From NCBI GenBank assembly GCA_003117195.1, contig BDSI01000226.1, forward strand, positions 44,070-108,069: a DNA stretch of 64,000 bases, given 5' to 3'. Numbering within the stretch: position 1 is the first letter of the stretch; each line of letters starts with the position of its first letter. Source of the stretch: Eudorina sp. 2006-703-Eu-15 (lineage: Eukaryota; Chlorophyta; Chlorophyceae; Chlamydomonadales; Volvocaceae). Positions 8,412-64,000 of the stretch are shown here, piece by piece. Both the position numbers and the translations under genes were made by a program. The notes under the pieces were generated by a model. The model ran no database searches. It was not told where the DNA came from and was given only the letters and a program-made list of their open reading frames with translations.

Positions 8412-8437
8412 GCGGGTGTACGTCGTGTGCACCGAAT

Positions 8438-30970: not shown

Positions 30971-31462
30971 CACGCCAACGTCCAAGCACATCTATGTACA
31001 TAGTACTACCGTTCTCCAGGCTCTGTACACCTGCCGTACTGTCGGTGAAACGCACAATCTGATGTCTTAGATGGACGCCAAGGACATCCACGCACGGGAG
31101 ATCTCCGCCCCCCCCACCCCGCGGACCTGAGTACACGGTTGTTGCCGCTGCGCTTTCGACCGATTCTAAAACCAGTTAACCAGTTCCCTCCCTCCCCGGA
31201 CGCGGACATCGACGCATGCGCACACAGTACACACACAACACACCCACACAATACACCTCTTCCCCCCCCCACACACCCTACACACAACCCTGTTCTGCCT
31301 GCCTAAGAAACACACATACACACACAATATACACACACCTGTTCTGCCTGCCTAAGAAACACACAATACACACACGCAAAACACGTTAATACTTCGCACA
31401 CGTAACCCCCACAACCCACGAAGACGTATCACTTTGAGACGTTCTCCCCATAAGGAGCCACA

Positions 31463-31499
<37 letters not shown>

Positions 31500-31881
31500 T
31501 GTTCTGCTACCGTACTACATTCGTTTTGTCGGGCGACCTTTCAAACCTTGACGCGGATGCCTTGGCACAGAAACAGCATCAGGTGAGCGACAACACCAGC
31601 GCCTGCTGCTGCTGCTGCTGCTGGTGCGGCTGTCAGCGCGGGGTGGCTGGCCCAAAGCAAGCAGTGCGGTAAACGTCGTCGCGGTTTGGGCTGATTGGGT
31701 TGGGTTGGGTTGGGTCCTCCCCCTCCCCCTCAATCGGCGAGGAGGATCTTACGATACCCGCCAAAACAAATTCACCCCACGGGACATTACTGCACGGCGC
31801 AGCCTCGCCGCTATCGCGGGCGCACAGCCACCGCCGCGCACCTCATCGCGTCCATCACCCACCGAGCGGCGGACGCTTCCG

Positions 31882-31883
<2 letters not shown>

Positions 31884-31931
<48 letters not shown>
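31884..31931. repeat. CT dinucleotide microsatellite
   Basis: About 48 bases of alternating CT on the plus strand, beginning just past the stop codon of the minus-strand pherophorin gene. It would be a GA run in the 3' untranslated region. Confidence 0.9.
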
Positions 31932-31934
<3 letters not shown>

Positions 31935-31952
31935 TCCGACCCGGCCGGGCGG

Positions 31953-36478: not shown

Positions 36479-36519
<41 letters not shown>

Positions 36520-39500
36520 CACCCGCACCCGCACCCGCACCCGCACCCGCACCCGCACCCGCACCCGCACCCGCACCCGCACCCGCACCCGCACCCGCAC
36601 CCGCACCCGCACCCGCACCCGCACCCGCACCCGCACCCGCACCCGCACCCGCACCCGCACCCGCACCCGCACCCGCACCCGCACCTGCACCGGGCAGTTT
36701 CCCTCACCCCTACCACGTCGCCAGCATCGCTCACCTCACCCCCCATCACCCCAGCCCACCCCACACCACCTGTACCCCGGGGTCTCGACCCCCCGTTCGC
36801 TCACCTTGCTGCCCGAACGGACACTGAACAGTGCGGTTGCGTTCGCGACGTCACCGTCCGCCCACCGCACCCACTGGCAGTAGGCCGAGCTGTTGCCGGA
36901 GGCCCAGGGCGCTACCTGGTTGCCGCCGCCCGGCCCAAGCGCACCGCCCGCGTCTGGTCCCTCCACCACGCTGCTCAGCCGGTCGGCGGCGCAGACGGAA
37001 TCGATGAACGAGGCGGCGGGCGCGGCGGGCGGCGGCGAGGGCGCGGTGCGGCCGCGGCTGCGGGGCGGCGGCGCCGAGTTGCTACCGAGCAGCAGGGCGC
37101 ACAGGCTGCAGCGCCAGGGATGGGAGGGGAAGGGGGAGGGCAGAAGAGAGGGAGGACAGGGGAGGGGTTTATGGGTAAGGCGCGAGAGCAAGCTGGCGAG
37201 CAGAGCGGCGGGGAGGGGGAGGAGCGTTGTTTTACATCACAGTCGCAATATACAACATCCACATCAAACAATACCGACGCAATACACGACGCAAACCAGC
37301 ACCTCTTGTATGTGACCCATGGGGATCGAACACCGTACCTGCCGGGTCGGGGCCACTGAAGACACGCCCTGCAGTACAGGAAGCGCGCCCCCATGGATAC
37401 CCGATAGGCGCAAGTCTCTGTGTCCAAGATCACATCGACGCACGAGGCCTGATCGCCGCATGCCCGTGAGTTCGGTGGTGGGGTGTCGATGTTGGTGGTG
37501 CCGCCCTCGTGCCAGCAACTCGCAGGCGGCGGCGGCGGAGGGGGCGGCGGCGGCGGCGGCGGCGCAGGGGGCGGCGGCGGCGGCGGAGACGGCGGGTTGG
37601 GCGGCGGTGGCGGTCTCGGCGGCCGTGGCGGCGGCGGTGGCGCAGGAGGCAGAGGTGCGTCGGGTAAGAATGGTGGGAAAGGTGGGGCTTTAGGCGCCAC
37701 CCTCCTAGGTGCCAGCGGCTCCGGCGGAAGCGGCGACGGTGGGGGCGGAAACGGCGATGGTGGGGGCGGGGGCGGCGGCGGCGGCGGCGGCGAAGGAGGT
37801 GGCGGCGAAGGTGGGGGCGGAGACGGCGGCGGTGGTGAAACGTCGGGCGGGGGCGGAGGAGGCGGAGGTGGGGGTAGTGATATAGGCGGCGGGGGTGGTG
37901 GAGGCGGTGGCGGGAGGGATTGAGCTGGGTTGCGGGGAGCGCTGGGCGACTGCGGGGAAGGCGGAGCGGGGCTGGGGGGCGGAGGTGGGTCTCCTGGTGG
38001 TGGGCTCATGGCCTCCGGAAACGGTGGATTGGGGTTCGGAGGTGAGGTCGGGAGAAGGGGGGCAGGGCTTGGAGGCGGCGTCAAGGGAGGCTGCGGGGAG
38101 GGCGGTGGAGGCTCTAATGGTGCGGTCGGACTGCCGGGTGGACTGCCGGGTGGGGATGGGCTTAGGAGTATGGCGGGCGACCCGGGCGGCGGGCTCGGCG
38201 GCTCCGGCGACGGCGGCTCAGGGCTGGGCGGCGCAGGCGACGGCGGCGCTGGGCTGAGAGGTGCGGCGGGCGACCCGGGCGGCGGGCTCGGCGGCTCCGG
38301 CGACGGCGGCTCAGGGCTGGGCGGCGCAGGCGACGGCGGCGCTGGGCTGAGAGGTGCGGCGGGCGACCCGGGCGGCGGGCTCGGCGGCTCCGGCGACGGC
38401 GGCTCAGGGCTGGGCGGCGCAGGCGACGGCGGCGCTGGGCTGAGAGGTGCGGCGGGCGACCCGGGCGGCGGGCTCGGCGGCTCCGGCGACGGCGGCTCAG
38501 GGCTGGGCGGCGCAGGCGACGGCGGCGCTGGGCTGAGAGGTGCGGCGGGCGACCCGGGCGGCGGGCTCGGCGGTTCCGGCGACGGCGGCTCAGGGCTGGG
38601 CGGCGCAGGCGACGGCAGCGCTGGCTGAGAGGTGCGGCGGGCGACCCGGGCGGCGGGCTCGGCGGTTCCGGCGACGGCGGCTCAGGGCTGGGCGGCGCAG
38701 GCGACGGCGGCGCTGGGCTGAGAGGTGCGGCGGTGACCCGGGCGGCGGGCTCGGCGGCTCCGGCGACGGCGGCTCAGGCTGGGCGGCGCAGGCGACGGCG
38801 GCGCTGGGCTGAGAGGTGCGGCGGGCGACCCGGGCGGCGGGCTCGGCGGTTCCGGCGACGGCGGCTCAGGGCTGGGCGGCGCAGGCGACGGCGGCGCTGG
38901 GCTGAGAGGTGCGGCGGGCGACCCGGGCGGCGGGCTCGGCGGTTCCGGCGACGGCGGCTCAGGGCTGGGCGGCGCAGGCGACGGCGGCGCTGGGCTGAGA
39001 GGTGCGGCGGGCGACCCGGGCGGCGGCTCGGCGGTTCCGGCGACGGCGGCTCAGGGCTGGGCGGCGCAGGCGACGGCGGCGCTGGGCTGAGAGGTGCGGC
39101 GGGTGACCCGGGCGGCGGCTCGGCGGCTCCGGCGACGGCGGCTCAGGGCTGGGCGGCGCAGGCGACGGCGGCGCTGGGCTGAGAGGTGCGGCGGGCGACC
39201 CGGGCGGCGGCTCGGCGGCTCCGGCGACGGCGGCGCAGGGCTGGGCGGCGCAGGCGACGGCGGCGCTGGGCTGAGAGGTGCGGCGGGCGACCCGGGCGGC
39301 GGGCTCGGCGGCTCCGGCGACGGCGGCTCAGGGCTGGGCGGCGCAGGCGACGGCGGGGCTGGGCTGAGAGGTGCGGCGGGCGACCCGGGCGGCGGGCTCG
39401 GCGGTTCCGGCGACGGCGGCGCAGGGCTGGGCGGCGCAGGCGACGGCGGGGCTGGGCTGAGAGGTGCGGCGGGCGACCCGGGCGGCGGGCTCGGCGGCTC

Positions 39501-42500
39501 CGGCGACGGCGCGCTCAGGGCTGGGCGGCGCAGGCGACGGCAGGCGCTGGGCTGAGAGGTGCGGCGGGCGACCCGGGCGGGCTCGGCGGCTCGGCGACGG
39601 CCGGCTCAGGGCTGGGCGGCGCAGGCGACGGCGGCGCTGGGTGAGAGGTGCGCGGGCGACCCGGGCGGCGGGCTCGCGGGTTCCGGCGACGGCGGCTCAG
39701 GGCTGGGCGCGCAGGCACGCGGCGCTGGGCTGAGAGGTGCGGCGGGCGACCCGGGCGGCGCGGCTCGGCGGTTCCGGCGACGGCGGCCAGGGCTGGCGGC
39801 GCAGGCGACGGCGGCGGGCTGAGAGGTGCGGCGGGCGACCCGGGCGGCGGGCTCGGCGTTCCGGCGACGGCGGCTCAGGGCTGGCGCGCAGGCGACGGCG
39901 GCGCTGGGCTGAGAGGTGCGGCGGGCGACCCGGGCGGCGGGCTCGGCGGCTCCGGCGAGCGGGGCTGGGCGGCGCAGGCGACGGCGGCGCTGGCTGAGAG
40001 GTGCGGCGGGCGACCCGGGCGGCGGGCTCGGCGGCTCCGGCGACGGCGGCTCAGGGCTGGGCGGCGCAGGCGACGGCGGCGCTGGGCTGAGAGGTGCGGC
40101 GGGCGACGCGGGCGGGGGGGCGGGCGACGGCGGCTCAGGCTGGGCGGCGCGGCGGGGGGGGCTGAGAGGTGCGGCGGGCGACCCGGGCGGCGGGCTCGGC
40201 GGTTCCGGCGACGGCGGCGCAGGGCTGGGCGGCGCAGGCGACGGCGGGGCTGGGCTGAGAGGTGCGGCGGGCGACCCGGGCGGCGGCTCGGCGGCTCCGG
40301 CGACGGCGGCTCAGGGCTGGGCGGCGCAGGCGACGGCGGCGCTGGGCTGAGAGGTGCGGCGGGCGACCCGGGCGGCGGGCTCGGCGGCTCCGGCGACGGC
40401 GGCTCAGGGCTGGGCGGCGCAGGCGACGGCGGCGCTGGGCTGAGAGGTGCGGCGGCGACCCGCGGGCGGCGGGCTCGGCGGCTCCGGCGACGGCGGCTCA
40501 GGGCTGGGCGGCGCAGGCGACGGCGGCGCTGGGCTGAGAGGTGCGGCGGGCGACCCGGGCGGCGGGCTCGGCGGTTCCGGCGACGGCGGCTCAGGGCTGG
40601 GCGGCGCAGGCGACGGCGGCGCTGGGCTGAGAGGTGGCGGCGGGTGACCCGGGCGGCGGCTCGGCGGCTCCGGCGACGGCGGCGCAGGGCTGGGCGGCGC
40701 AGGCGACGGCGGCGCTGGGCTGAGAGGTGCGGCGGGCGACCCGGGCGGCGGGCTCGGCGGCTCCGGCGACGGCGGCGCAGGGCTGGGCGGCGCAGGCGAC
40801 GGCGGCGCTGGGCTGAGAGGTGCGGCGGGCGACCCGGGCGGCGGGCTCGGCGGCTCCGGCGACGGCGGCTCAGGGCTGGGCGGCGCAGGCGACGGCGGGG
40901 CTGGGCTGAGAGGTGCGGCGGGCGACCCGGGCGGCGGCTCGCGGCTCCGGCGACGGCGGCTCAGGGCTGGGCGGCGCAGGCGACGGCGGGCTGGGCTGAG
41001 AGGTGCGGCGGGCGACCCGGGCGGCGGGCTCGGCGGCTCCGGCGACGGCGGCTCAGGGCTGGGCGGCGCAGGCGACGGCGGCGCTGGGCTGAGAGGTGCG
41101 GCGGGCGACCGCGGGCGGCGGGCTCGGCGGTTCCGGCGACGGCGGCTCAGGGCTGGGCGGCGCAGGCGACGGCGGCGCTGGGCTGAGAGGTGCGGCGGGT
41201 GACCCGGGCGGCGGGCTCGGCGGCTCCGGCGACGGGCGGCTCAGGGCTGGGCGGCGCAGGCGACGGCGGCGCTGGCTGAGAGGTGCGGCGGGCGACCCGG
41301 GCGGCGGCTCGGCGGTTCCGGCGACGGCGGCTCAGGGCTGGGCGGCGCAGGCGACGGGCGGCGCTGGGCTGAGAGGTGCGGGGGGGGGCGGGGGGCGGGG
41401 CGGCGAGGCGGCGGGCTGGGCGGCGCAGGCGCGGCGGGTGGGAGGTGCGGCGGGCGACCCGGGCGGCGGGCTCGGCGGTGCGGCGAGGCGGCTGCAGGGC
41501 TGGGCGGCGCAGGCGACGGCGGCGCTGGGCTGAGAGGTGCGGCGGGCGACCCGGGCGGCGGGCTCGGCGGTTCCGGCGACGGCGGCTCAGGGCTGGGCGC
41601 GCAGGCGACGGCGGCGCTGGGCTGAGAGGTGCGGCGGCGACCCGGGCGGCGGGCTCGGCGGCTCCGGCGACGGCGGCTCAGGGCTGGGCGGCGCAGGCGA
41701 CGGCGGCGCTGGGCTGAGAGGTGCGGCGGGCGACCCGGGCGGCGGGCTCGGCGGCTCCGGCGACGGCGGCTGCAGGGCTGGGCGGCGCAGGCGACGGCGG
41801 CGCTGGGCTGAGAGGTGCGGCGGGCGACCCGGGCGGCGGGCTCGGCGGCTCCGGCGACGGCGGCTCAGGGCTGGGCGGCGCAGGCGACGGCGGCGCTGGG
41901 CTGAGAGGTGCGGCGGGCGACCCGGGCGGCGGGCTCGGCGGCTCCGGCGACGGCGGCTCAGGGCTGGGCGGCGCAGGCGACGGCGGCGCTGGGCTGAGAG
42001 GTGCGGCGGGCGACCCGGGCGGCGGGCTCGGCGGCTTCCGGCGACGGCGGCTGCAGGGCTGGGCGGCGGGAGGGGCGGCGGCGGCTGGGCTGAGAGGTGC
42101 GGCGGGTGACCGGGGGGGGGGCTCGCGGCTCCGGCGACGGCGGCTCAGGGCTGGGCGCGCAGGCGACGGCGGCGCTGGGCTGAGAGGTGCGGCGGGCGAC
42201 CCGGGCGGCGGGCTCGGCGGCTCCGGCGACGGCGGCTCAGGGCTGGGCGGCGCAGGCGACGGCGGCGCTGGGCTGAGAGGTGCGGCGGGCGACCCGGGCG
42301 GCGGGCTCGGCGGCTCCGGCGACGGCGGCTCAGGGCTGGGCGGCGCAGGCGACGGCGGGGCTGGGCTGAGAGGTGCGGCGGGCGACCCGGGCGGCGGCTC
42401 GCGGCTCCGGCGACGGCGGCTCAGGGCTGGGCGGCGCAGGCGACGGCGGGCTGGGCTGAGAGGTGCGGCGGGCGACCCGGGCGGCGGGCTCGGCGGCTCC

Positions 42501-45500
42501 GGCGACGGCGGCTCAGGGCTGGGCGGCGCAGGCGACGGCGGACGCTGGCTGAGAGGTGCGGCGGCGGGCGACGCTCGCGGCGCGCGGCGGGCTCGGGCGC
42601 GGCTTCCGGGCGACGGCGCCGCTGCAGCGGCTGGGCGGCGCAGGCGACGGCGGCGCTGGGCTGAGAGGTGGCGGCGGGCGACCCGGGCGGCGGGCTCGGC
42701 GCTCCGGCGACGGCGGCTCAGGGCTGGGCGGCGCAGGCGACGGCGGCGCTGGGCTGAGAGGTGCGGCGGGCGACCGGGCGGCGGGCTCGGCGGCTCCGGC
42801 GACGGCGGCAGGGCTGGGCGCGCAGGCGACGGCGGCGCTGGCTGAGAGGTGCGGCGGGCGACCCGGGCGCGGCTCGGCGGCTCCGGCGACGGCGGCTCAG
42901 GGCTGGGCGGCGCAGGCGACGGCGGCGCTGGCTGAGAGGTGCGGCGGGACCGGGCGGCGGCTCGGCGGCTCCGGCGACGGCGCTCAGGCTGGGCGGCGCA
43001 GGCGACGGCGGCGCTGGGCTGAGAGGTGCGGCGGCGACCGGGGCGGCGGCTCGGCGGCCGGCGACGGCGGCTCAGGGCTGGGCGGCGCAGGCGACGGCGG
43101 CGCTGGGCTGAGAGGTGCGGCGGGCGACCCGGGCGGCGGGCTCGGCGGTTCCGGCGACGGCGGCTCAGGGCTGGGCGGCGCAGGGCGACGGCGGCGCTGG
43201 GCTGAGAGGTGCGGCGGGCGACCCGGGCGGCGGGCTCGCGGCTTCCGGCGACGGCGGCTCAGGGCTGGGCGGCGCAGGCGACGGCGGCGCTGGGCTGAGA
43301 GGTCGGCGGGGCGACCCGGGCGGCGGGCTCGGCGCTCCGGCGACGGCGGCTCAGGGCTGGGCGGCGCAGGCGACGGCGGCGCTGGGCTGAGAGGTGCGGC
43401 GGGCGACCCGGGCGGCGGCTCGGCGGCTCCGAGCGACGGCGGCTCAAGGGCTGGGCGGCGCAGGCGACGGCGGCGGCTGGGCTGAGAGGTGCGGCGGGCG
43501 ACCCGGGCGGCGGGCTCGGCGGTTCCGGCGACGGGCGCTCAGGGCTGGGCGGCGCAGGCGACGGCGGGGCTGGGCTGAGAGGTGCGGCGGGCGACCCGGG
43601 CGGCGGGCTCGCGGCTCCGGCGACGGCGGCTCAGGGCTGGGCGGCGCAGGCGACGGCGGCGGCTGGGCTGAGAGGTGCGGCGGGCGACCCGGGCGGCGGG
43701 CTCGGCGGCTCCGGCGACGGCGGCTCAGGGCTGGGCGGCGCAGGCGACGGCGGCGCTGGGCTGAGAGGTGCGGCGGGCGACCCGGGCGGCGGCTCGGCGG
43801 CTCCGGCGACGGCGGCTCAGGGCTGGGCGGCGCAGGCGACGGCGGCGCTGGGCTGAGAGGTGCGCGGGCGACCCGGGCGGCGGCTCGGCGGTCCGGCGAC
43901 GGCGGCTCAGGGCTGGGCGGCGGCAGGCGACGGCGGCGCTGGCTGAGAGGTGCGGCGGTGACCGGGCGGCGGGCTCGGCGCTCCGGCGACGGCGGCTCAG
44001 GGCTGGGCGGCGCAGGCGACGGCGGCGCTGGGCTGAGAGGTGCGGCGGGCGACCGGGCGGCGGGCTCGGCGGCTCCGGCGACGGCGGCTAGGGCTGGGCG
44101 GCGCAGGCGACGGCGGCGCTGGCTGAGAGGTGCGGCGGGCGACCCGGGCGGGTCGGCGCTCGGGCGGCTATCCGGCGACGGCGGCGCAGGGCTGGTGCGG
44201 CGCAGGCGATCGGCGGGCGGGGGCTGGGCTGAGAGGTGCGGCGGGCGACCCGGGCGGCGGCTCGGCGGCTCCGGCGACGGCGGCTCAGGGCTGGGCGGCG
44301 CAGGCGACGGCGGGGCTGGGCTGAGAGGTGCGGCGGGCGACCCGGGCGGCGGGGCTCGGCGGCTCCGGCGACGGCGGCTCAGGGCTGGGCGGCGGCAGGC
44401 GACGGCGGCGCTGGGCTGAGAGGTGGCGGCGGGCGACCCGGGCGGCGGCTCGCGCTCCGGCGACGGCGGCTCAGGGCTGGGCGGCGCAGGCGACCGGCGA
44501 GCGCTGGCTGAGAGTGCGGCGGCGGGCGACCGCGGGCGGCGGGCTCGGCGCTCCGGGCGACGGCGGCTCAGGCTGGGCGGCGCAGGCGACGGCGGCGCTG
44601 GGCTGAGAGGTGGCGGCGGGCGACCCCGGGCGGGCGGGCTCGGCGCTCCGGCGACGGCGGCTCAGGGCTGGCGGCGCAGGCGACGGCGGCGCTGGGCTGA
44701 GAGGTGCGGCGGGCGACCCGGGCGGCGGGCTCGGCGGCTCCGGCGACGGCGGCTCAGGGCTGGGCGGCGCAGGCGACGCGGCGCTGGGCTGAGAGGTGCG
44801 GCGGGGACCCGGGCGGCGGGCTCGGCGGCTCCGGCGACGGCGGCGCAGGGCTGGGCGGCGCAGGCGACGGGCGGCGCTGGCTGAGAGGTGCGGCGGGCGA
44901 CCCGGGCGGCGGGCTCGGCGGCTCCGGCGACGGCGGCTCAGGGCTGGGCGGCGCAGGCGACGCGGCGCTGGCTGAGAGGTGCGGCGGGCGACCCGGGCGG
45001 CGGGCTCGGCGGCTCCGGCGACGGCGGCTCAGGGCTGGGCGGCGCAGGCGACGGCGGCGCTGGGCTGAGAGGTGCGGCGGGCGACCGCGGGCGGCGGGCT
45101 CGGCGGCTCCGGCGACGGCGCTCAGGGCTGGGCGGCGGCAGGCGACGGCGGCGCTGGGCTGAGAGGTGCGGCGGGCGACGCCGGGCGGCGGGCTCGGCGG
45201 CTCCGGCGACGGGCGGCTCAGGCTGGGCGGCGCAGGCGACGGCGGCGCTGGCTGAGAGGTGCGGCGGGCGACCCGGCGGCGGGCTCGGCGGTTCCGGCGA
45301 CGGCGGCTCAGGGCTTGGGCGGCGCAGGCGACGGCGGGGCTGGGCTGAGAGTGCGGCGGGCGACCCGGGCGGCGGGCTCGGCGGCTCCGGCGACGGCGGC
45401 TCAGGGCTGGGCGGCGCAGGCGACGGCGGCGCTGGGCTGAGAGGTGCGGCGGGCGACCGGGCGGCGGGCTCGGCGGCTCCGGCGACGGCGGCTCAGGGCT

Positions 45501-48500
45501 GGGCGGCGCAGGCGACGCGGCGCTGGCTGAGAGGTGCGGCGGCGACCCGGGCGGCGGGCTCGGCGGCTCCGGCGACGAGGGCTGGGCGGCGCAGGCGACG
45601 GCGGCGCTGGCTGAGAGGTGCGGCGGGCGACCGGGCGGCTCGGGGCTCCGGCGACGGGGCTCAGGGCTGGGCGGCGCAGGCGACGGCGCGCTGGGCTGAG
45701 AGGTGCGGTCGGCGGCTCAGGCTGGGCGGCGCAGGCGAGAGGTGCGGCGGGGACCCGGGCGGCGGCTCGGCGGCTCCGGCGACGGCGGCTCAGGGCTGGC
45801 GCGCAGGCGACGGCGGCGCTGGGCTGAGAGGTGCGGCGGGCGACCCGGGCGGCGGCTCGGCGGCTCCGGCGACGGCGGCTCAGGGCTGGGCGGCGCAGGC
45901 GACGGCGGCGCTGGGCTGAGAGGTGCGGCGGGCGACCCGGGCGGCGGGCTCGGCGGCTCCGGCGACGGCGGCTCAGGGCTGGGCGGCGCAGGCGACGGCG
46001 GGCTGGGCTGAGAGGTGCGGCGGGCGACCGGGCGGCGGGCTCGCGGCTCCGGCGACGGCGGCTCAGGGCTGGGCGGCGCAGGCGACGGCGGCGCTGGGCT
46101 GAGAGGTGCGGCGGGCGACCCGGGCGCGGCTCGGCGGCTCCGGCGACGGCGGCTCAGGCTGGGCGGCGCAGGCGACGGCGGCGCTGGGCTGAGAGGTGCG
46201 GCGGGCGACCCGGGCGGCGGGCTCGCGGCTCCGGCGACGGCGGCTCAGGGCTGGCGGCGCAGGCGACGGCGGCGCTGGGCTGAGAGGTGCGGCGGGCGAC
46301 CCGGGCGGCGGGCTCGGCGGCTCCGGCGACGGCGGCTCAGGGCTGGCGGCGCAGGCGACGGCGGCGCTGGGCTGAGAGGTGCGGCGGGCGACCCGGGCGA
46401 CGGCGCTCAGGCTGGGCGGCGCAGGCGACGCGGCGCTGGGCTGAGAGGGTGGCGGGCGCGGCGACGCGGCCGGGCGGGCGGCGGGCTCGGCGGCTGGTCC
46501 GGCGACGGCGGGGGCGGCTCAGGGGCTGGGCGGCGCAGGCGACGCGCGGGGCGCTGGGCTGAGAGGTGCGGCGGGCGACCCGGGCGGCGGGCTCGGCGGC
46601 TCCGGCGACGGCGGCTCAGGGCTGGCGGCGCAGGCGACGGCGGCGCTGGGCTGAGAGGTGCGGCGGGGACCGGGGGGGCTCGGCGGTCCGGCGACGGCGG
46701 CTCAGGGCTGGGCGGCGCAGGCGACGGCGGCGCTGGGCTGAGAGGTGGCGGCGGGCGACCCGGGCGGCGGCTCGGCGGCTCCGGCGACGGCGGCTCAGGG
46801 CTGGGCGGCGCAGGCGACGGCGGCGCTGGGCTGAGAGGTGGCGGCGGGCGACCCGGGCGGCGGGCTCGGCGGCTCCGGCGACGGCGGCTCAGGGCTGGGC
46901 GGCGCAGGCGACGGCGGCGGCTGGGCTGAGAGGTGCGGCGGGCGACCCGGGCGGCGGGCTCGGCGGCTCCGGCGACGGCGGCTCAGGGCTGGGCGCGCAG
47001 GCGACGGCGGCGCTGGGCTGAGAGGTGCGGCGGGCGACCCGGGCGGCGGGCTCGGCGGCTCCGGCGACGGCGGCTCAGGGCTGGGCGGCGGCAGGCGACG
47101 GCGGCGCTGGCTGAGAGGTGCGGCGGCTCGGCGGGGCGACGGCGGCTCAGGGCTGGGCGGCGCAGGCGACGGCGGCGCTGGCTGAGAGCGGCGGGCGACG
47201 GGGCGGCTCGGCGGCTCCGGCGACGGCGGCTCAGGGCTGGGCGCGCAGGCGACGGCGGCGCTGGGCTGAGAGGTGCGGCGGGCGACCCGGCGGCGGGCTC
47301 GGCGGCTCCGGCGACGGCGGCTCAGGGCTGGGCGGCGCAGGCGACGGCGGCGCTGGCGAGAGGTGCGCGGGCGACCCGGGCGCGGGCTCGGCGGCTCGGC
47401 GACGGCGGCTCAGGGCTGGCGGCGCAGGCGACGGCGGCGCTGGGCTGAGAGGTGCGGCGGGCGACCCGGGCGGCGGGCTCGGCGCCGCGACGGCGGCTCA
47501 GGGCTGGGCGGCGCAGGCGACGCGGGGCTGAGAGGTGCGGCGGGCGACCCGGGCGGCGGCTCGGCGGCTCCGGCGACGGCGGCTCAGGGCTGGGCGGCGC
47601 AGGCGACGGCGGCGCTGGGCTGAGAGGTGCGGCGGGCGACCCGGGCGGCGGCTCGGCGCTCCGGCGACGGCGGCTCAGGGCTGGGCGGCGCAGGCGACGG
47701 CGGCGCTGGGCTGAGAGGTGCGGCGGGCGACCCGGGCGGCGGGCTCGGCGGCTCCGGCGACGGCGGCTGGGCGGTGGCTGAGAGGTGTCGGCGGCTCCGG
47801 CGACGGCGCTCAGGCTGGGCGGCGCTGGGCTGCGGCTCGCGGCTCGGCGACGGCGGCTCAGGAGGCGACGGGGGCTGGCGGCGGCGGGCGACCCGGGCGG
47901 GGCTCGGCGGCTCCGGCGACGGCGGCTCAGGGCTGGGCGGCGCAGGCGACGGCGGCGCTGGGCTGAGAGGTGCGGCGGGCGACCCGGGCGGCGGGCTCGG
48001 CGGCTCCGGCGACGGCGGCTCAGGGCTGGGCGGCGCAGGCGACGGCGGCGCTGGGCTGAGAGGTGCGGCGGGCGACCGGGCGGCGGGCTCGGCGGCTCCG
48101 GCGACGGCGGCTCAGGGCTGGGCGGCGCAGGCGACGGCGGCGCTGGGCTGAGAGGTGCGGCGGGCGACCCGGGCGGCGGGCTCGGCGGCTCCGGCGACGG
48201 CGCTCAGGGCTGGGCGGCGCAGGCGACGGCGGCGCTGGCTGAGAGGTGCGGCGGGCGACCCGGGCGGCGGGCTCGCGCTCCGGCGACGGCGGCTCAGGGC
48301 TGGGCGGCGCAGGCGACGGCGGCGCTGGCTGAGAGGTGCGGCGGGCGACCCGGCGGCGGGCTCGGCGGCTCCGGCGACGGCGGCTCAGGGCTGGGCGGCG
48401 CAGGCGACGGCGCGCTGGCTGAGAGGTGCGGCGGGCGACCCGGGCGGCGGCTCGGCGGCTCCGGCGACGGCGCAGGTGGGCGAGGCGACGGCGGGCTGGG

Positions 48501-54500: not shown

Positions 54501-57500
54501 GGCGGCTCCGGCGACGGCGGCTCAGGGCTGGGCGGCGCAGGCGACGGCGGCGCTGGGCTGAGAGGTGCGGCGGGCGACCCGGGCGGCGGGCTCGGCGGCT
54601 CCGGCGACGGCGGCTCAGGGCTGGGCGGCGCAGGCGACGGCGGCGCTGGGCTGAGAGGTGCGGCGGGCGACCCGGGCGGCGGGCTCGGCGGCTCCGGCGA
54701 CGGCGGCTCAGGGCTGGGCGGCGCAGGCGACGGCGGGCTGGGCTGAGAGGTGCGGCGGGCGACCGGGGCGCGGCTCGGCGGCTCCGGCGACGGCGGCTCA
54801 GGGCTGGGCGGCGCAGGCGACGGCGGCGCTGGCTGAGAGGTGCGGCGGGCGACCCGGGCGCGGGCTCGGCGGCTCGGCGACGGCGGCTCAGGGCTGGGCG
54901 GCGCAGGCGACGGGCGCTGGCTGAGAGGTGCGGCGGGCGACCCGGGCGGCGGGCTCCGGCGACGGCGCTCAGGGCTGGGCGCAGGCGACGGCGGCGCTGG
55001 GCTGAGAGGTGCGGCGGGCGACCCGGGCGGCGGGCTCGGCGGCTCCGGCGACGGCGGCTCAGGGCTGGGCGGCGCAGGCGACGGCGGCGCTGGGCTGAGA
55101 GGTGCGGCGGGCGACCCGGGCGGCGGGCTCGGCGGCCGGCGACGGGCGCTCAGGGCTGGCGGCGCAGGCGACGGCGGCGCTGGGCTGAGAGGTGCGGCGG
55201 CGACCGGGCGGCGGGCTCGGCGACGGCGGCTCAGGCTGGGCGGCGCAGGCGACGGCGGCGCTGGCTGAGAGGTGCGGCGGGCGACCGGGCGGCGGGCTCG
55301 GCGGCTCCGGCGACGGCGGCTCAGGGCTGGGCGGCAGGCGACGGGCGCTGGGCTGAGAGGTGCGGCGGGCGACCCGGGCGCGGGCTCGGCGGCTCCGGCG
55401 ACGGCGCTCAGGCTGGGCGGCGCAGGCGACGGCGGCGCTGGGCTGAGAGGTGCGGCGGCTCGGCGGGGCGACGGCGGCTCAGGGCTGGGCGGCGCAGGCG
55501 ACGGCGGCGCTGGGCTGAGAGGTGCGGCGGGCGACCGGGCGGCGGCTCGGCGGCTCCGGCGACGGCGGCTCAGGGCTGGGCGGCGCAGGCGACGGCGGCG
55601 CTGGGCTGAGAGGTGCGGCGGGCGACCCGGGCGGCGGGCTCGGCGGCCGGCGACGGCGGCTCAGGGCTGGGCGGCGCAGGCGACGGCGGCGCTGGGCTGA
55701 GAGGTGCGGCGGGCGACCCGGGCGGCGGGCTCGGCGGCTCCGGCGACGGCGGCTCAGGGCTGGGCGGCGCAGGCGACGGCGGCGCTGGGCTGAGAGGTGC
55801 GGCGGGCGACCGGGCGGCGGCTCGGCGGCTCCGGCGACGGCGGCTCAGGGCTGGGCGGCGCAGGCGACGGCGGCGCTGGCTGAGAGGTGCGGCGGGCGAC
55901 CCGGGCGGCGGGCTCGGCGGCTCCGGCGACGGCGGCTCAGGGCTGGGCGGCGCAGGCGACGGCGGCGCTGGGCTGAGAGGTGCGGCGGGCGACCCGGGCG
56001 GCGGCTCGGCGGCTCCGGCGTCAGGCTGGGCGGCGCAGGCGACGGCGGCGCTGGGCTGAGAGGTGCGGCGGGCGACCCGGGCGGCGGGCTCGGCGGCTCC
56101 GGCGACGGCGGCTCAGGGCTGGGCGGCGCAGGCGACGGCGGCGCTGGCTGAGAGGTGCGGCGGGCGACCCGGGCGGCGGGCTCGGCGGCTCCGGCGACGG
56201 CGGCTCAGGGCTGGGCGGCGCAGGCGACGGCGGCGCTGGGCTGAGAGGTGCGGCGGGCGACCCGGCGCGGGGCTCGGCGGCTCCGGCGACGGCGGCTCAG
56301 GGCTGGGCGGCGCAGGCGACGGCGGCGCTGGCTGAGAGGTGCGGCGGCGACCCGGGCGGCGGCTCGGCGGGGCGACGGCGCTCAGGGCTGGGCGCGCAGG
56401 CGACGGCGGCGCTGCTGAGAGGTGCGGCGGGCGACCGGGCGGCGGGCTCGGCGGTTCCGGCGACGGCGGCTCAGGGCTGGGCGGCGCAGGCGACGGCGGC
56501 GCTGGGCTGAGAGGTGCGGCGGGCGACCCGGGCGGCGGGCTCGGCGGGCGACGGCGGCTCAGGGCTGGGCGCGCAGGCGACGGCGGCTGGCGGCGGCGAC
56601 CCGGCGGCGGGCTCGGCGGCTCCGGCGACGGCGGCTCAGGGCTGGGCGGCGCAGGCGACGGCGGCGCTGGGCTGAGAGGTGCGGCGGGCGACCCGGGCGG
56701 CGGGCTCGGCGGCTCCGGCGACGGCGGCTCAGGGCTGGGCGGCGCAGGCGACGGCGGCGCTGGCTGAGAGGTGCGGCGGGCGACCCGGGCGGCGGGCTCG
56801 GCGGCTCGGCGACGGCGGCTCAGGGCTGGGCGGCGCAGGCGACGGCGGCGCTGGCTGAGAGGTGCGGCGGCGACCCGGGCGGCGGCTCGGCGGCTCCGGC
56901 GACGGCGGCTCAGGGCTGGGCGGCAGGCGACGGCGGCGCTGGGCTGAGAGGTGCGGCGGGCGACCCGGCGGCGGGCTCGGCGGCTCCGGCGACGGCGGCT
57001 CAGGGCTGGGCGGCGCAGGCGACGGCGGCGCTGGGCTGAGAGGTGCGGCGGGACCCGGGCGGCGGGCTCGGCGCTCCGGCGACGGCGGCTCAGGGCTGGG
57101 CGGCGCAGGCGACGGCGGCGCTGGCTGAGAGGTGCGCGGGCGACCCGGGCGCGGGCTCGGCGCTCCGGCGACGGCGGCTCAGGGCTGGGCGGCGCAGGCG
57201 ACGGCGGCGCTGGGCTGAGAGGTGCGGGGGCGACCCGGGCGGCGGGCTCGGCGGCTCCGGCGACGGCGCTCAGGCTGGGCGGCGCAGGCGACGGCGGCGC
57301 TGGGCTGAGAGGTGCGGCGGCGACCCGGGCGGCGGGCTCGGCGGCTCCGGCGACGGCGGCTCAGGGCTGGGCGGCGCAGGCGACGGCGGCGCTGGCTGAG
57401 GTGCGGCGGGCGACCGGCGGCGGCTCGGCGGCGGCGACGGCGGCTCAGGGCTGGCGGCGCAGGCGACGGCGGGGCTGGGCTGAGAGGTGCGGCGGGCGAC

Positions 57501-60500
57501 CGGGCGGCGGGCTCGGCGGCTCCGGCGACGGCGGCTCAGGCTGGGCGGCGCAGGCGACGGCGGCGCTGGGCTGAGAGGTGCGGCGGGCGACCCGGGCGCG
57601 GCTCGGCGGCTCCGGCGACGGCGGCTCAGGGCTGGGCGGCGCAGGCGACGGCGGCGCTGGGCTGAGAGGTGCGGCGGGCGACCCGGGCGGCGGGCTCGGC
57701 GCTCCGGCGACGGCGGCTCAGGGCTGGGCGGCGCAGGCGACGGCGGCGCTGGCTGAGAGGTGCGGCGGGCGACCCGGGCGGCGGGCTCGGCGGCTCCGGC
57801 GACGGCGCTCAGGCTGGGCGGCGCAGGCGACGGCGGCGCTGGCTGAGAGGTGCGGCGGGCGACCCGGGCGGCGGGCTCGGCGACGGCGGCTCAGGGCTGG
57901 GCGGCGCAGGCGACGGCGGCGCTGGCTGAGAGGTGCGGCGGGCGACCCGGGCGGCGGGCTCGCGGGGCGACGGCGGCTCAGGGCTGGGCGGCGCAGGCGA
58001 CGGCGGCGCTGGCTGAGAGGTGCGGCGGGCGACCCGGGCGGCGGGCTCGGCGGGCGACGGCGGCTCAGGGCTGGGCGGCGCAGGCGACGGCGGCGCTGGG
58101 CTGAGAGGTGCGGCGGGCGACCCGGGCGCGGCTCGGCGGCTCCGGCGACGCGGCTCAGGGCTGGGCGGCGCAGGCGACGGCGGCGCTGGCTGAGAGGTGC
58201 GGCGGCGACCCGGGCGGCGGTCGGCGGTCCGGCGACGGCGGCTCAGGGCTGGGCGCGCAGGCGACGGCGGCGCTGGGCTGAGAGGTGCGGCGGGCGACCC
58301 GGGCGGCGGCTCGGCGGCTCGGCGACGGCGGCTCAGGGCTGGGCGGCGCAGGCGACGGCGGCGCTGGGCTGAGAGGTGCGGGGGCGACCCGGGCGGCGGG
58401 CTCGGCGCTCCGGCGACGGCGGCTCAGGGCTGGGCGGCGCAGGCGACGGCGGCGCTGGCTGAGAGGTGCGGCGGGCGACCCGGGCGGGCTCGGCGGCCGG
58501 CGACGGCGGCTCAGGGCTGGGCGGCAGGCGACGGCGGCGCTGGCTGAGAGGTGCGGCGGGCGACCCGGGCGGCGGGCTCGGCGGCTCCGGCGACGGCGGC
58601 TCAGGGCTGGGCGCGCAGGCGACGGCGGCGCTGGGCTGAGAGGTGCGGCGGGCGACCGGGCGGCGGCTCGGCGGCTCCGGCGACGGCGGCTCAGGGCTGG
58701 GCGGCGCAGGCGACGGCGGCGCTGGCTGAGAGGTGCGGCGGGCGACCCGGGCGGCGGGCTCGGCGGCTCCGGCGACGGCGGCTCAGGGCTGGCGGCGCAG
58801 GCGACGGCGGCGCTGGGGAGAGGTGCGGCGGCGACCGGCGGCGGGCTCGGCGGCGGCGACGGCGGCTCAGGCTGGGCGGCGCAGGCGACGGCGGCGCTGG
58901 GCTGAGAGGTGCGGGCGACCGGCGGCGGGCTCGGCGGCTCGGCGACGGCGGCTCAGGCTGGGCGGCGCAGGCGACGGCGAGCGTCGGCGGGCGACGGCGC
59001 TCAGGGCTGGGCGGCGCAGGCGACGGCGGCGCTGGCTGAGAGGTGCGGCGGGCGACCCGGGCGGCGGGCTCGGCGCTCGGCGACGGCGGCTCAGGGCTGG
59101 GCGGCGCAGGCGACGGCGGCGCTGGGCTGAGAGGTGCGCGGGCGACCCGGCGGCGGGCTCGGCGGGCGACGGCGGCTCAGGGCTGGCGGCGCAGGCGACG
59201 GCGGCGCTGGCTGAGAGGTGCGGCGGGCGACCCGGGCGGCGGGCTCGGCGCTCCGGCGACGGCGGCTTGGCGGCGCCGAAGAGGCTCACGGCGGCTCAGG
59301 GCTGGGCGAGGCGACGCGGCGCTGGGCTGAGAGTGCGGCGGCTCGGCGGCTCCGGCGACGGCGGCTCAGGGCTGGGCGCGCAGGCGACGGCGGCGCTGGG
59401 CTGAGAGGTGCGGCGGGCGACCCGGGCGGCGGCTCGGCGGCTCCGGCGACGGCGGCTCAGGGCTGGGCGGCGCAGGCGACGGCGGCGCTGGGCTGAGAGG
59501 TGCGGCGGGCGACCGGGCGGCGGGCTCGGCGGGGCGACGGCGGCTCAGGCTGGGCGGCGCAGGCGACGGCGGCGCTGGGCTGAGAGGTGCGGCGGCGACC
59601 CGGGCGGCGGCTCGGCGGCTCCGGCGACGGCGGCTCAGGCTGGGCGCGCAGGCGACGGCGGCGCTGGGCTGAGAGGTGCGGCGGGCGACCCGGGCGGCGG
59701 GCTCGGCGGCTCGGCGACGGCGGCTCAGGGCTGGGCGGCGCAGGCGACGGCGGCGCTGGGCTGAGAGGTGCGGCGGGCGACCCGGGCGGCGGGCTCGGCG
59801 GCTCCGGCGACGGCGGCTCAGGGCTGGGCGGCAGGCGACGGCGGCGCTGGCTGAGAGGTGCGGCGGGCGACCCGGGCGGCGGGCTCGGCGGCTCCGGCGA
59901 CGGCGGCTCAGGGCTGGGCGGCGCAGGCGACGGCGGCGCTGGGCTGAGAGGTGCGGCGGCGACCGGGCGGCGGCTCGGCGGCTCCGGCGACGGCGGCTCA
60001 GGGCTGGCGGCGCAGGCGACGGCGGCGCTGGGCTGAGAGGTGCGGCGGGCGACCGGGCGCGGGCTCGGCGGCCGGCGACGGCGCTCAGGCTGGGCGGCGC
60101 AGGCGACGGCGGCGCTGGCTGAGAGGTGCGGCGGGCGACCCGGGCGGCGGGCTCGGCGGCGGCGACGCGCTCAGGCTGGGCGGCGCAGGCGACGGCGGCG
60201 CTGGGCTGAGAGGTGCGGCGGCGTCGGCGCGGCGACGGCGGCTCAGGGCTGGGCGGCGCAGGCGACGGCGGCGCTGGCTGAGAGGTGCGGCGGGCGACCC
60301 GGCGGCGGGCTCGGCGGCTCCGGCGACGGCGGCTCAGGGCTGGGCGGCGCAGGCGACGGCTGGCTGAGCGGCGGGCGACCCGGCGGCGGGCTCGGCGGCT
60401 CGGCGACGGCGGCTCAGGTGGGCGGCGCAGGCGACGGCGCTGGGCTGAGAGGTGCGGCGGGCGACCCGGGCGGCGGGCTCGGCGGCTCCGGCGACGGCGG

Positions 60501-63500
60501 CTCAGGGCTGGGCGGGCAGGCGACGGCGGCGCTGGCTGAGAGGTGCGGCGGCGCGACCCGGGCGGCGGGCTCGGCGGCTCCGGCGACGGCGGCTCAGGGC
60601 TGGGCGCGCAGGCGACGGCGGCGCTGGCTGAGAGGTGCGGCGGGCGACCCGGGCGGCGGGCTCGGCGGCTCCGGCGACGGCGGCTCAGGGCTGGGCGGCG
60701 CAGGCGACGGCGCTGGGCTGAGAGGTGCGGCGGGCGACCCGGGCGGCGGCTCGGCGGTTCCGGCGACGGCGGCTCAGGCTGGGCGCGCAGGCGACGGCGG
60801 GCCTGGCTGAGAGTGCGGCGGGCGACCCGGGCGGCGGCTCGGCGGCCGGCGACGGCGGCTCAGGGCTGGGCGGCGCAGGCGACGGCGGCGCTGGGCTGAG
60901 AGGTGCGGCGGGCGACCCGGGCGGCGGGCTCGCGGCTCCGGCGACGGCGGCTCAGGGCTGGGCGGCGCAGGCGACGGCGGCGCTGGGCTGAGAGGTGCGG
61001 CGGGCGACCCGGGCGGCGGGCTCGGGGCGACGGGGCGGCGCGACGGCGACGGACGGCGGCTCAGGGCTGGGCGGCGCAGGCGACGGCGGCGCTGGGCTGA
61101 GAGGTGCGGCGGGCGACCCGGGCGGCGGGCTCGGCGGCTCCGGCGACGGCGGCTCAGGCTGGGCGGCGCAGGCGACGGCGGCGCTGGGCTGAGAGGTGCG
61201 GCGGGCGACCGGGCGGCGGCTCGGCGGCTCCGGCGACGGCGGCTCAGGGCTGGGCGGCGCAGGCGACGGGCGCTGGCTGAGAGGTGCGGCGGGCGACCCG
61301 GGCGGCGGGCTCGCGGCCGGCTCAGGGCTGGGCGGCGCAGGCGACGGCGGCGCTGGGCTGAGAGGTGCGGCGGGCGACCCGGGCGGCGGGCTCGGCGGCT
61401 CCGGCGACGGCGGCTCAGGGCTGGGCGGCGCAGGCGACGGCGGCGCTGGGCTGAGAGGTGCGGCGGGCGACCCGGGCGCGGGCTCGGCGGCTCCGGCGAC
61501 GGAGGGCTGGGCGGCGCAGGCGACGGCGGCGCTGGGCTGAGAGGTGCGGCGGCGACCCGGGCGGCGGCTCGGCGGCTCCGGCGACGGCGCTCAGGGCTGG
61601 GCGGCGCAGGCGACGGCGGCGCTGGGCTGAGAGGTGCGGCGGGCGACCCGGGCGGCGGGCTCGGCGGCTCCGGCGACGGCGGCTCAGGGCTGGCGGCGCA
61701 GGCGACGGCGGGCTGGGCTGAGAGGTGCGGCGGCGACCCGGGCGGCGGGCTCGGCGGCCGGCGACGGCGGCTCAGGGCTGGGCGGCGCAGGCGACGGCGG
61801 CGCTGGCTGAGAGGTGCGGCGGGCGACCCGGGCGGCGGGCTCGGCGGCTCCGGCGACGGCGGCTCAGGGCTGGGCGGCGCAGGCGACGGCGGCGCTGGGC
61901 TGAGAGGTGCGGCGGGCGACCCGGGCGGCGGGCTCGGCGGCTCGGCGACGGCGGCTCAGGGCTGGGCGGCGCAGGCGACGGCGGCGCTGGCTGAGAGGTG
62001 CGGCGGGCGACCCGGGCGGCGGGCTCGCGGCTCCGGCGACGGCGGCTCAGGGCTGGGCGGCGCAGGCGACGGCGGCGCTGGGCTGAGAGGTGCGGCGGGC
62101 GACCCGGGCGGCGGCTCGGCGGCTCCGGCGACGGCGGCTCAGGGCTGGGCGGCGCAGGCGACGGCGGCGCTGGCTGAGAGGTGCGGCGGGCGACCCGGGC
62201 GGCGGGCTCGGCGGCTCCGGCGACGGCGCTCAGGGCTGGGCGGCGCAGGCGACGGCGGCGCTGGGCTGAGAGGTGCGGCGGGCGACCGGGCGGCGGGCTC
62301 GGCGGCTCCGGCGACGGCGGCTCAGGCTGGGCGGCGCAGGCGACGGCGGCGCTGGGCTGAGAGGTGCGGCGGGCGACCCGGGCTCGGCGGGGCGACGGCG
62401 CTCAGGGCTGGGCGGCGCAGGCGACGGCGGCGCTGGCTGAGAGGTGCGGCGGGCGACCCGGCGGCGGGCTCGACGGCGCTCAGGGCTGGCGGCGCAGGCG
62501 ACGCGGGCTGGCTGAGAGGTGCGGCGGGCTCGGCGGCTCCGGCGACGGCGGCTCAGGGCTGGGCGGCGGCGACGGCGGCGCTGGGCTGAGAGGTGCGGCG
62601 GGCGACCCGGGCGGCGGCTCGGCGGCTCCGGCGACGGCGGCTCAGGGCTGGGCGGCGCAGGCGACGGCGGCGCTGGGCTGAGAGGTGCGGCGGGCGACCC
62701 GGGCGGCGGCTCGGCGGTCCGGCGACGGCGGCTCAGGCTGGGCGGCGCAGGCGACGGCGGCGCTGGGCTGAGAGGTGCGGCGGGCGACCGGCGGCGGCTC
62801 GGCGGCTCCGGCGACGGCGGCTCAGGGCTGGGCGGCGCAGGCGACGGCGGCGCTGGGCTGAGAGCGGGCGACCGGCGGCGGGCTCGGCGCTCCGGCGACG
62901 GCGGCTCAGGGCTGGCGGGCAGGCGACGGCGGCGCTGGCTGAGAGGTGCGGCGGGCGACCCGGGCGGCGGCTCGGCGGCTCCGGCGACGGCGGCTCAGGC
63001 TGGGCGGCGCAGGCGACGGCGGGCTGGGCTGAGAGGTGCGGCGGGCGACCCGGGCGCGGGCTCGGCGGCTCGGCGACGGCGGCTCAGGGCTGGCGGCGCA
63101 GGCGACGGCGGCGCTGGCTGAGAGGTGCGGCGGGCGACCCGGGCGGCGGGCTCGGCGGCTCCGGCGACGGCGGCTCAGGCTGGGCGGCGCAGGCGACGGC
63201 GGCGCTGGCTGAGAGGTGCGGCGGGCGACCGGGCGGCGGCTCGGCGGGGCGACGGCGGCTCAGGCTGGGCGCGCAGGCGACGGCGGCGCTGGCTGAGAGG
63301 TGCGGCGGCGACCTCGGCGGGCGACGGCGGCTCAGGCTGGGCGGCAGGCGACGGCGGCGCTGGGCTGAGAGGTGCGGCGGGCGACCGGGCGGCGGGCTCG
63401 GCGGCTCCGGCGACGGCGCTCAGGCTGGGCGGCGCAGGCGACGGCGGCGCTGGCTGAGAGGTGCGGCGGGCGACCGGGCGGCGGCTCGGCGTCCGGCGAC

Positions 63501-64000
63501 GGCGGCTCAGGGCTGGGCGGCGCAGGCGACGGCGGCGCTGGGCTGAGAGGTGCGGCGGGCGACCCGGCGACTCAGGCTGGGCTCTGAGCGCGCGACCCGG
63601 GCGACGGCGGCTCAGGGCTGGGCGGCGCAGGCGACGGCGGCGCTGGGCTGAGAGGTGCGGCGGGCGACCCGGGCGGCGGCTCGGCGGGCGACGGCGGCTC
63701 AGGGCTGGGCGGCAGGCGACGGCGCGCTGGCTGAGAGTGCGCGGGCGACCGGGCGTCGGCGGCTCCGGCGACGGCGCTCAGGGCTGGGCGGCGCAGGCGA
63801 CGGCGGCTGGGCTGAGAGGTGCGGCGGCGACCCGGGCGCGGGCTCGGCGGCTCCGGCGACGGCGGCTCAGGGCTGGGCGCGCAGGCGACGGCGGCGCTGG
63901 CTGAGAGGTGCGGCGGGCGACCGGGCGGGGCTCGGCGGCTCCGGCGACGGCGGCTCAGGGCTGGGCGGCGCAGGCGACGGCGGCGCTGGGCTGAGAGGTG
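31953..64000 (-). CDS. Giant pherophorin-like matrix glycoprotein, 5' end outside window
   Basis: Secreted hydroxyproline-rich matrix protein, by family. Exons in the 3' part: (beyond 64000?)-37339, 37105-36805, 35836-35722, 35428-35381, 34706-34317, 34043-33577, 33304-32709, 32307-31953; all phases agree. Order of parts: 31-residue Ser-Pro-rich repeats (38172 and above), a Pro-rich linker, Cys-rich domain 1 ([17 protein letters not shown] ... [13 protein letters not shown]), a second Pro-rich linker, Cys-rich domain 2 ([17 protein letters not shown] ... [12 protein letters not shown]), a short Pro-rich linker, and a C-terminal pherophorin domain ([20 protein letters not shown] ... [14 protein letters not shown]). 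Stop at 31953-31955. Domains 1 and 2 align closely, so they are internal duplicates. The N-terminus and signal peptide are not visible. The frame through the array is broken by many single-base indels as given. The downstream exons are firm; inclusion of the array in the coding exon is inferred. Confidence 0.8.
32404..32493. repeat. TGTGGT hexamer array in pherophorin intron
   Basis: About 15 copies of a six-base unit (ggttgt in plus sense), followed by a GT run. It lies wholly within the 401-base intron 32308-32708, so it does not encode protein. Confidence 0.9.
35086..35365. repeat. 14-bp minisatellite, exactly 20 copies, in pherophorin intron
   Basis: The unit is gatacccgctatc followed by t or c. 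The only difference between copies is that last base, giving the order TCCTTCCTTCCTCTCCTTCT along the 20 units. Much of it follows a four-unit (56-bp) higher-order pattern. GATA and TATC inside each unit are reverse complements. It sits in the intron 34707-35380. Confidence 0.9.
35636..35695. repeat. ACCAA pentamer run in pherophorin intron
   Basis: About 11 copies of the five-base unit aacca on the plus strand, within the intron 35429-35721. Several long open frames reported over it in various frames come from the repeat itself. Confidence 0.9.
36077..36684. repeat. Hexanucleotide array (CCGCAC)n with a 40-base C run
   Basis: About 600 bases of ccgcac units, with several one- to three-base slips (for example near 36193, 36244, 36302 and 36430) and a homopolymer C run at about 36479-36518. 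It lies in the intron 35837-36804 between a gtgagc donor and a cacag acceptor. The minus strand (transcript sense) has regularly spaced GGG runs, so it could form G-quadruplexes. The length of the C run is unlikely to be exact. Confidence 0.9.
37510..38171 (-). other. Pro-rich (hydroxyproline) linker of the pherophorin gene
   Basis: The minus strand codes for long runs of Pro with [12 protein letters not shown] and PNPPSPP motifs, the typical pherophorin linker. It runs without a stop from the end of the 93-bp array to the Cys-rich domain that starts with SCWHEGG. The codons are irregular here, so this is the older, non-arrayed part of the linker. Confidence 0.85.
38172..64000. repeat. Giant 93-bp minisatellite, about 280 copies, runs off the window
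   Basis: The unit is 93 bases (boundaries at 38261, 38354, 38447 and 38540) and can be followed by the block gctgggctgagaggtgcggc. On the minus strand, in phase with the pherophorin exon, each unit codes for 31 residues, 17 of them Pro, built of APPSP and EPPSP blocks, then PPPGSP and AAPLS. Recurrent base changes: ggctcc/ggttcc, ggctca/ggcgca, gcgggcgac/gcgggtgac, and ggcgct/ggggct. From about 38620 on, a large share of copies lack one base, nearly always in a G run, and some copies are badly truncated (for example near 40120, 42580, 47800 and 63580). No spacer or unrelated sequence interrupts the array. Confidence 0.95.

What the first reader, a model, noticed from the sequence alone, without database searches (positions are those of the whole stretch)
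38172..64000. A >25.8-kb array that appears to be an expanded coding linker of a pherophorin
Seen: about 280 copies of a 93-base unit (3 x 31) run without interruption into a pherophorin exon. Read on the minus strand from 38270 down to 37339, I find no stop and the frame stays the same as the Cys-rich domain. In that frame the unit is 31 residues with 17 Pro, in [10 protein letters not shown] blocks, the same style as the adjoining linker. If translated, the linker alone would exceed 8,000 residues and be one of the longest hydroxyproline-rich stretches known to me. This would suggest a matrix protein whose reach is set by repeat number. An intron or a purely structural satellite remains possible.
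Basis: partly seen in the sequence, partly recalled or inferred. Interest (0 to 1): 0.88.

Follow-up and report, generated by a model that had tools for sequence, protein, structure and literature searches.

The report
Giant proline-rich linker of matrix protein
The end of this algal contig is a very long run of near-identical 93-base units that most likely encodes an enormously stretched proline-rich rod inside a secreted matrix protein, but its true length and its translation still need long reads and RNA to prove.

Summary
Confirmed: 93-bp units fill 38172-64000 (TRF 282 copies, wrap-around alignment 289). The array ends only because contig C226 ends. From 38.6 kb on, hundreds of small deletions break the frame. 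They look like sequencing errors: a second, unpolished contig of the locus (C2425) shares substitution variants with C226 in register over 21 units (0 of 300 shuffles), yet 43 and 109 deleted positions share only 2; before the hexamer repeat their flanks differ by 0 substitutions and 22 gaps, all in C2425. The 31-residue PPSPX-type unit is in frame with a 217-residue proline-rich linker and a Cys-rich module; seven GT-AG introns later come a PF12499 pherophorin domain and a stop. Relatives in Chlamydomonas incerta and C. schloesseri have a 111-residue linker at that place. Best reading: an expanded coding hydroxyproline-rich linker, thousands of residues if the assembled length is right. Not shown: transcription, the N-terminal end (no contig found), true copy number. 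By the published two-domain rule it is not a classical pherophorin: one PF12499 domain was found. A second gene (C196) also starts its contig inside such an array.

The parts
38172..64000 (-). Array of about 289 units of 93 bp (31 residues, [31 protein letters not shown]), cut by the contig end
   Evidence: contig end
38241..40154 (-). Units 2-22 of the array counted from the gene, matched in register by the second contig C2425
37339..38171 (-). Non-array proline-rich linker (651 bp, 217 residues, 38171-37521) followed by the first exon piece of Cys-rich module 1 (37520-37339); GT donor at 37338
36805..37105 (-). Exon, Cys-rich module 1 continued
   Evidence: GT-AG; module 1 is 53% identical to P0003 (Tetrabaena) and 51% to P0006 (Edaphochlamys)
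35722..35836 (-). Exon, Cys-rich module 1 continued
35381..35428 (-). Exon, end of Cys-rich module 1 ([12 protein letters not shown])
34317..34706 (-). Exon, second proline-rich linker; acceptor 34706 chosen among four frame-open ones by likeness to P0001
33577..34043 (-). Exon, Cys-rich module 2
   Evidence: no Pfam match
32709..33304 (-). Exon, third linker and first half of pherophorin domain PF12499
   Evidence: (E 3.6e-14)
31953..32307 (-). Last exon, second half of PF12499 and stop codon
   Evidence: (E 1.5e-07; joined halves 1.8e-25)

Best explanation
The array is part of an exon: an expanded, hydroxyproline-rich (HR) linker of a secreted multi-module matrix protein, lying between an unassembled N-terminal part and the Cys-rich module at 37.5 kb. 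Each 93-bp unit adds 31 residues built largely of PPSPX motifs. After prolyl hydroxylation and glycosylation such a stretch would form a stiff polyproline-II rod, so that repeat number sets the distance between the protein's globular ends. The array grows and is kept uniform by in-frame unequal exchange. Shown: the array, its register with the gene, unshared deletions in the two contigs, a GT-AG gene model, relatives with a linker at this place. Inferred: translation, secretion, rod structure, length control, thousands of residues.
For: (1) One frame joins unit, linker and Cys-rich exon; 93 = 3 x 31. (2) The indels that spoil the frame look like errors: in the first 45 units of each contig, C226 units 2-22 match C2425 units 1-21 by three substitution sites (score 31.75; best of 300 shuffles 18.25), while 43 and 109 deleted positions share only 2. 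In the flank before the hexamer repeat C2425 lacks bases at 22 places and shows 0 substitutions against C226. Of 1-bp deletions 51% fall in CCC or GGG runs in both contigs, 23% expected. (3) Relatives P0010 and P0013 have a 111-aa linker, 56 and 57% Pro, with [14 protein letters not shown] blocks, directly before the homologous module. (4) Paralogue C72:326000-330500: an open frame with a 905-residue Pro-rich linker (66% Pro), its first part 33 units of 30 bp without indels. (5) Of 55 isolated substitutions in the array 44 are synonymous (29 of 37 in C226, 15 of 18 in C2425) against 83 of 279 possible changes.
Against: No RNA or peptide data. No contig was found that joins the far side: 104 of 104 exact matches of a 68-base piece of the unit lie in C226, C1176 and C2425 (one search lists 100; accounts for the rest), and C1176 is array at both ends. 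The relatives' N-terminal part finds only six weak matches in this genome (best 34% over 83 residues, E 3e-5). Point 4 is weakened because a second forward frame is also open there. Point 5 is pseudo-replicated (few kinds, copied), and 174 of 229 mismatches lying near other differences were left out. Only 21 units are corroborated by two contigs, probably from one data set. In the C72 units codon positions 1, 2, 3 vary 31, 27 and 40 times, no clear coding signal. V. carteri HR domains average 89 residues and long ones are weakly expressed (PMC9818292, section 3.2 read).
Confidence: 0.68

Rival explanations
1. It is a coding linker, but the assembly inflated it: overlaps between near-identical units were chained out of register, and the real linker has tens of units, not hundreds.
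For: Units are almost identical, so overlaps are ambiguous; the best register alignment of C226 and C2425 stops after unit 22; the error texture changes along C226 (deletions, insertions and mismatches mixed to about 50 kb, then mostly deletions), as if several reads were chained.
Against: Three contigs carry 25.8, 9.1 and up to 16.75 kb of array; C1176 is array at both ends with 20 exact matches of the 68-base piece between. Losing the far flank in all three is easier to understand if the array exceeds typical read length (20-kb libraries if this is the Eudorina assembly; PMC6123790 passages).
Confidence: 0.18
2. The array is not translated: an intron, or an upstream satellite, with the coding sequence starting at or after about 38.17 kb.
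For: Every unit holds CAG, so an acceptor is possible; 4 of 6 frames are open anyway; no upstream exon has been found.
Against: The unit has the same kind of Pro-rich blocks and the same frame as the 651-bp linker that follows it; two related protein models have a linker there and an N-terminal part before it (P0010, P0013); the C72 paralogue keeps one frame open through its array. Three introns of this gene hold repeats of other kinds (hexamers and a 14-bp unit).
Confidence: 0.12
3. A decayed, frame-shifted array of a pseudogene.
For: As assembled, 38 of 290 units are free of indels.
Against: Deletions are not shared between the two contigs of the locus beyond 2 positions, about what chance would give; the downstream exons keep open frames, GT-AG introns and conserved cysteines.
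Confidence: 0.02

Closest known systems
Multi-module 'pherophorin domain-containing' proteins of Chlamydomonas incerta (P0010) and C. schloesseri (P0013), and 'Sulfated surface glycoprotein' of Tetrabaena socialis (P0001)
   Same: Two Cys-rich modules, then one PF12499 domain, in the same order with Pro-rich linkers between; a linker directly before module 1
   Different: That linker is 111 residues in P0010 and P0013; here it is an array of near-identical 31-residue units, about 9,000 residues as assembled. P0001's model starts just before a 32-residue linker, so its full length is unknown.
Classical pherophorins of Volvox and Chlamydomonas
   Same: HRGP design with globular ends and a Pro-rich rod of variable length; PF12499 domain
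   Different: They have two PF12499 domains (PMC10066295 passage); here one was found. Mean HR domain 89 (V. carteri) or 181 residues (C. reinhardtii) (PMC9818292 section 3.2)
GP1 and sexual agglutinins (PPSPX shafts)
   Same: PPSPX motifs taken to form polyproline-II shafts (PMC11785195, preprint, passages)
   Different: Common globular domains were not tested; here the motifs lie in near-identical 31-residue units, in far greater number if the assembly is right
Paralogous arrays in the same genome (C72, C196)
   Same: SPxPP-block arrays, in one open frame (C72) or running from a contig start into a Cys-rich module (C196)
   Different: Units of 30, 60 or 108 bp; C72 linker 905 residues to the end of its ORF

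Membership tests
Pherophorin (two or more PF12499 domains joined by an HR region; rule in PMC10066295) | At least one PF12499 domain | tested here: met
   Joined exons hit PF12499, E 1.8e-25, profile positions 1-148 of 148
Pherophorin (two or more PF12499 domains joined by an HR region; rule in PMC10066295) | Two or more PF12499 domains | tested here: not met
   In the assembled part Cys-rich modules 1 and 2 give 0 Pfam families at E<=1. The N-terminal part is not assembled; relative P0010, whose model includes one, has a single PF12499 stretch
Pherophorin (two or more PF12499 domains joined by an HR region; rule in PMC10066295) | HR linker of variable length | tested here: met
   Pro-rich linker plus array in one frame; hydroxylation itself not testable
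Multi-module pherophorin-domain protein (P0001/P0010 type) | Cys module, linker, Cys module, linker, PF12499 in this order | tested here: met
   Alignment A1, 52, 45 and 40% identity to P0001, P0004, P0010, with one doubtful exon still in my sequence; BLASTP without it
Multi-module pherophorin-domain protein (P0001/P0010 type) | N-terminal part before the linker | tested here: inconclusive
   Present in the models P0010 and P0013; six weak matches elsewhere in this genome; contig ends first
Hydroxyproline-rich glycoprotein with PPSPX shaft | PPSPX motifs in long runs | tested here: met
   Unit translation
Hydroxyproline-rich glycoprotein with PPSPX shaft | Hydroxylated, glycosylated, secreted | not testable with these tools
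   Needs protein; any signal peptide would lie in the unassembled part

The most novel reading that the evidence does not exclude
A matrix protein of about 10,000 residues whose single rod of near-identical 31-residue units (about 9,000 residues, near 2.8 micrometres if fully extended at a recalled 0.31 nm per residue) acts as a ruler in the colony matrix; copy number differs between strains and tunes matrix spacing, and it is one of at least two such genes, each broken by the assembly at its array.
Probability: 0.42. Interest if true: 0.78.

Novelty: new variant of a known kind. Interest (0 to 1): 0.56.

Why it matters
Volvocine matrix is a model for how multicellularity evolved. Reported mean HR linkers are 89 and 181 residues in Volvox carteri and Chlamydomonas reinhardtii (PMC9818292). 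A linker of thousands of residues that changes by whole 31-residue steps would be a simple genetic dial on matrix spacing, testable by comparing strains. It would also suggest that such genes are missed because contigs end inside them.

Tried and rejected
Real frameshifts in the units: judged unlikely from units 2-22. A higher-order 185-bp repeat in C2425 (TRF): rejected; one-base deletions fall at varying places. A candidate exon at about 36.03-36.08 kb, in my first joined protein: dropped, because relatives lack it. RNA families: 0 matches in 30000-45000 at gathering thresholds. RNA folding: the sense strand of 38172-38300 folds less well than 200 of 200 shuffles (z +4.0), the other strand than 194 of 200 (z +1.8); no structural reading follows. 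Papers on giant HRGP or repeat-linker genes: the listings (titles and starts of abstracts) showed none that describes this array; only open-licence papers are held. The third protein search, residues 205-345 of P0010, found only P0010 and P0013.

Full report
What is there. From 38172 to the last base of the window lies an array of 93-bp units: TRF reports 282.0 copies with 79% matches and 10% indels, and a wrap-around alignment gives 289 copies. The genome resembles the published Eudorina sp. female assembly (184.0 Mb, 3180 contigs, PacBio with 20-kb libraries, HGAP3, Illumina correction; PMC6123790, passages seen), but the numbers are not equal and the identity is my inference. The named protein relatives are from Tetrabaena, Astrephomene, Edaphochlamys and Chlamydomonas (12 distinct proteins).

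Frame as assembled. On the minus strand one ORF (38681..36975, 568 aa) covers the first units, a Pro-rich linker of 217 residues and the Cys-rich exon. Four of six frames of the unit have no stop, so openness is weak evidence. The first indel lies at 38624; farther out C226 has 730 deletion runs, 605 of them of one base, and 38 of 290 units are free of indels.

The deletions look like errors. They rise from 0.3% in the part next to the gene to 1.7-14.8% per kb farther out, while mismatches are 0.3% or less in 13 of the 14 outermost 1-kb bins. A second contig, C2425 (11969 bp), holds the same locus: in the flank before the hexamer repeat it lacks bases at 22 places, mostly in homopolymers, with 0 substitutions; over the whole flank, simple repeats included, identity is 96.6% with 12 mismatches and 87 gap positions. 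Its array of 9.1 kb runs off its start. Scoring three variable sites per unit in the first 45 units of each contig, the best local alignment pairs C226 units 2-22 with C2425 units 1-21 without a gap (score 31.75; 300 shuffles of unit order, mean 12.5, maximum 18.25, none as high). Two of the 21 pairs disagree at one site (C226 units 8 and 14), and in eight pairs at least one site is deleted in one contig. In these pairs 43 positions are deleted in C226 and 109 in C2425, with 2 in common. So variants are shared and deletions are not. Beyond unit 22 the best alignment ends, so order and number farther out are uncorroborated.

Other copies. A 38-base piece of the unit matches 52 times forward, equal to C2425's own count, and 184 times reverse, 114 of them in the window. 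A 68-base piece matches 104 times: 51 in C226, 20 in C1176, and 33 forward; 29 of these 33 are listed, in C2425, and C2425 holds 33 copies even of the 70-base piece. C1176 (16752 bp) is array at both ends; its middle was not read. No contig was found that joins the far side of the array.

The gene. Exons on the minus strand are 38540 (an arbitrary start inside the array) to 37339, 37105-36805, 35836-35722, 35428-35381, 34706-34317, 34043-33577, 33304-32709 and 32307-31953. All seven introns begin with GT and end with AG, and the exons join into 1157 residues with one terminal stop. The acceptor at 34706 is one of four that keep the frame; I chose it by likeness to P0001. The last two exons encode PF12499 (1.8e-25 when joined). 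The two Cys-rich modules match no Pfam family at E<=1 but are conserved: 52% identity to the Tetrabaena protein P0001 over an alignment that still held one doubtful exon, and 53% over module 1 to P0003 with that exon removed.

Why coding. The models P0010 and P0013 have an N-terminal part, then 111 residues of linker with 56 and 57% Pro and blocks such as [14 protein letters not shown], then the homologous module. The array therefore sits where relatives have a linker. In the same genome C72:326000-330500 has an open frame of 992 codons whose last 905 are a Pro-rich linker (66% Pro); its first part is 33 units of 30 bp without indels. A second, arginine-rich forward frame of 1006 codons is open there too, so this is support and not proof, and codon positions in those units show no clear coding pattern (31, 27 and 40 minority letters). 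Of 229 mismatches in the two arrays, 55 are isolated (eight matching bases on either side); 44 of the 55 are synonymous against 83 of 279 possible changes. They are few kinds copied many times, so I give this little weight.

How it probably works. PPSPX motifs are held to form polyproline-II shafts in GP1 and the sexual agglutinins, and constructs with more of them were better anchored in the wall in a fusion test (PMC11785195, preprint, passages). I infer a rod whose length follows repeat number. In C226 the A variant at unit position 38 is denser in the 40 units next to the gene (13 of 37 readable) than in the rest (7 of 222; Fisher p 5e-8), as expected if exchange homogenises the interior. 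The split at 40 was chosen after seeing the data, only this site was tested, and in C2425 the trend is the same but not significant (8 of 38 v 5 of 53, p 0.14).

Membership. The published rule for pherophorins asks for two PF12499 domains (PMC10066295 passage). One was found in the assembled part, and the relative P0010 also has one stretch. I therefore file it as a multi-module pherophorin-domain HRGP, not as a classical pherophorin; it probably works like one.

How sure. Linker rather than non-coding: about 0.85. Thousands of residues: about 0.68. The assembled length of about 8,959 residues (289 units) is a property of the assembly until reads are checked.

Noticed in passing
L074 (C196:1-7000), 1-5399: A second gene begins its contig inside a noisy 30/60-bp [10 protein letters not shown] array of 5.4 kb that runs into a Cys-rich module, with weak module matches at C196:5780 and 7936. 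Contig C187 also begins inside a [18 protein letters not shown] stretch (first 80 bases read), and C2499 (11696 bp) has matches to the unit at 673-3238 and 7450-11682 (not read).
   Followed up: partly
G000 contig C72, about 299.8-328.2 kb: At least five groups of matches to the unit suggest a tandem cluster of related Pro-rich linker genes; only the last group was read (L073).
   Followed up: partly
window 33577-34043 and 35381-37520: The Cys-rich module (CGDQA..C, LYC..C..WPR, YCQ.VRW, ECLW..VPRPGG) occurs two or more times in several volvocine and Chlamydomonas proteins and matched no Pfam family in the two copies scanned here.
   Followed up: partly
window 36079-36691: Intron filled with about 103 copies of CCGCAC and a run of about 44 C; at the edge of that run C2425 reads hexamers, so the run may be an error.
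   Followed up: partly
window 35084-35369: 20 copies of a 14-bp minisatellite in another intron of the gene, in two variants (variants seen).
   Followed up: no
window 32322-32523: GTTGGG and TGTGGT repeats in the last intron of the gene.
   Followed up: no
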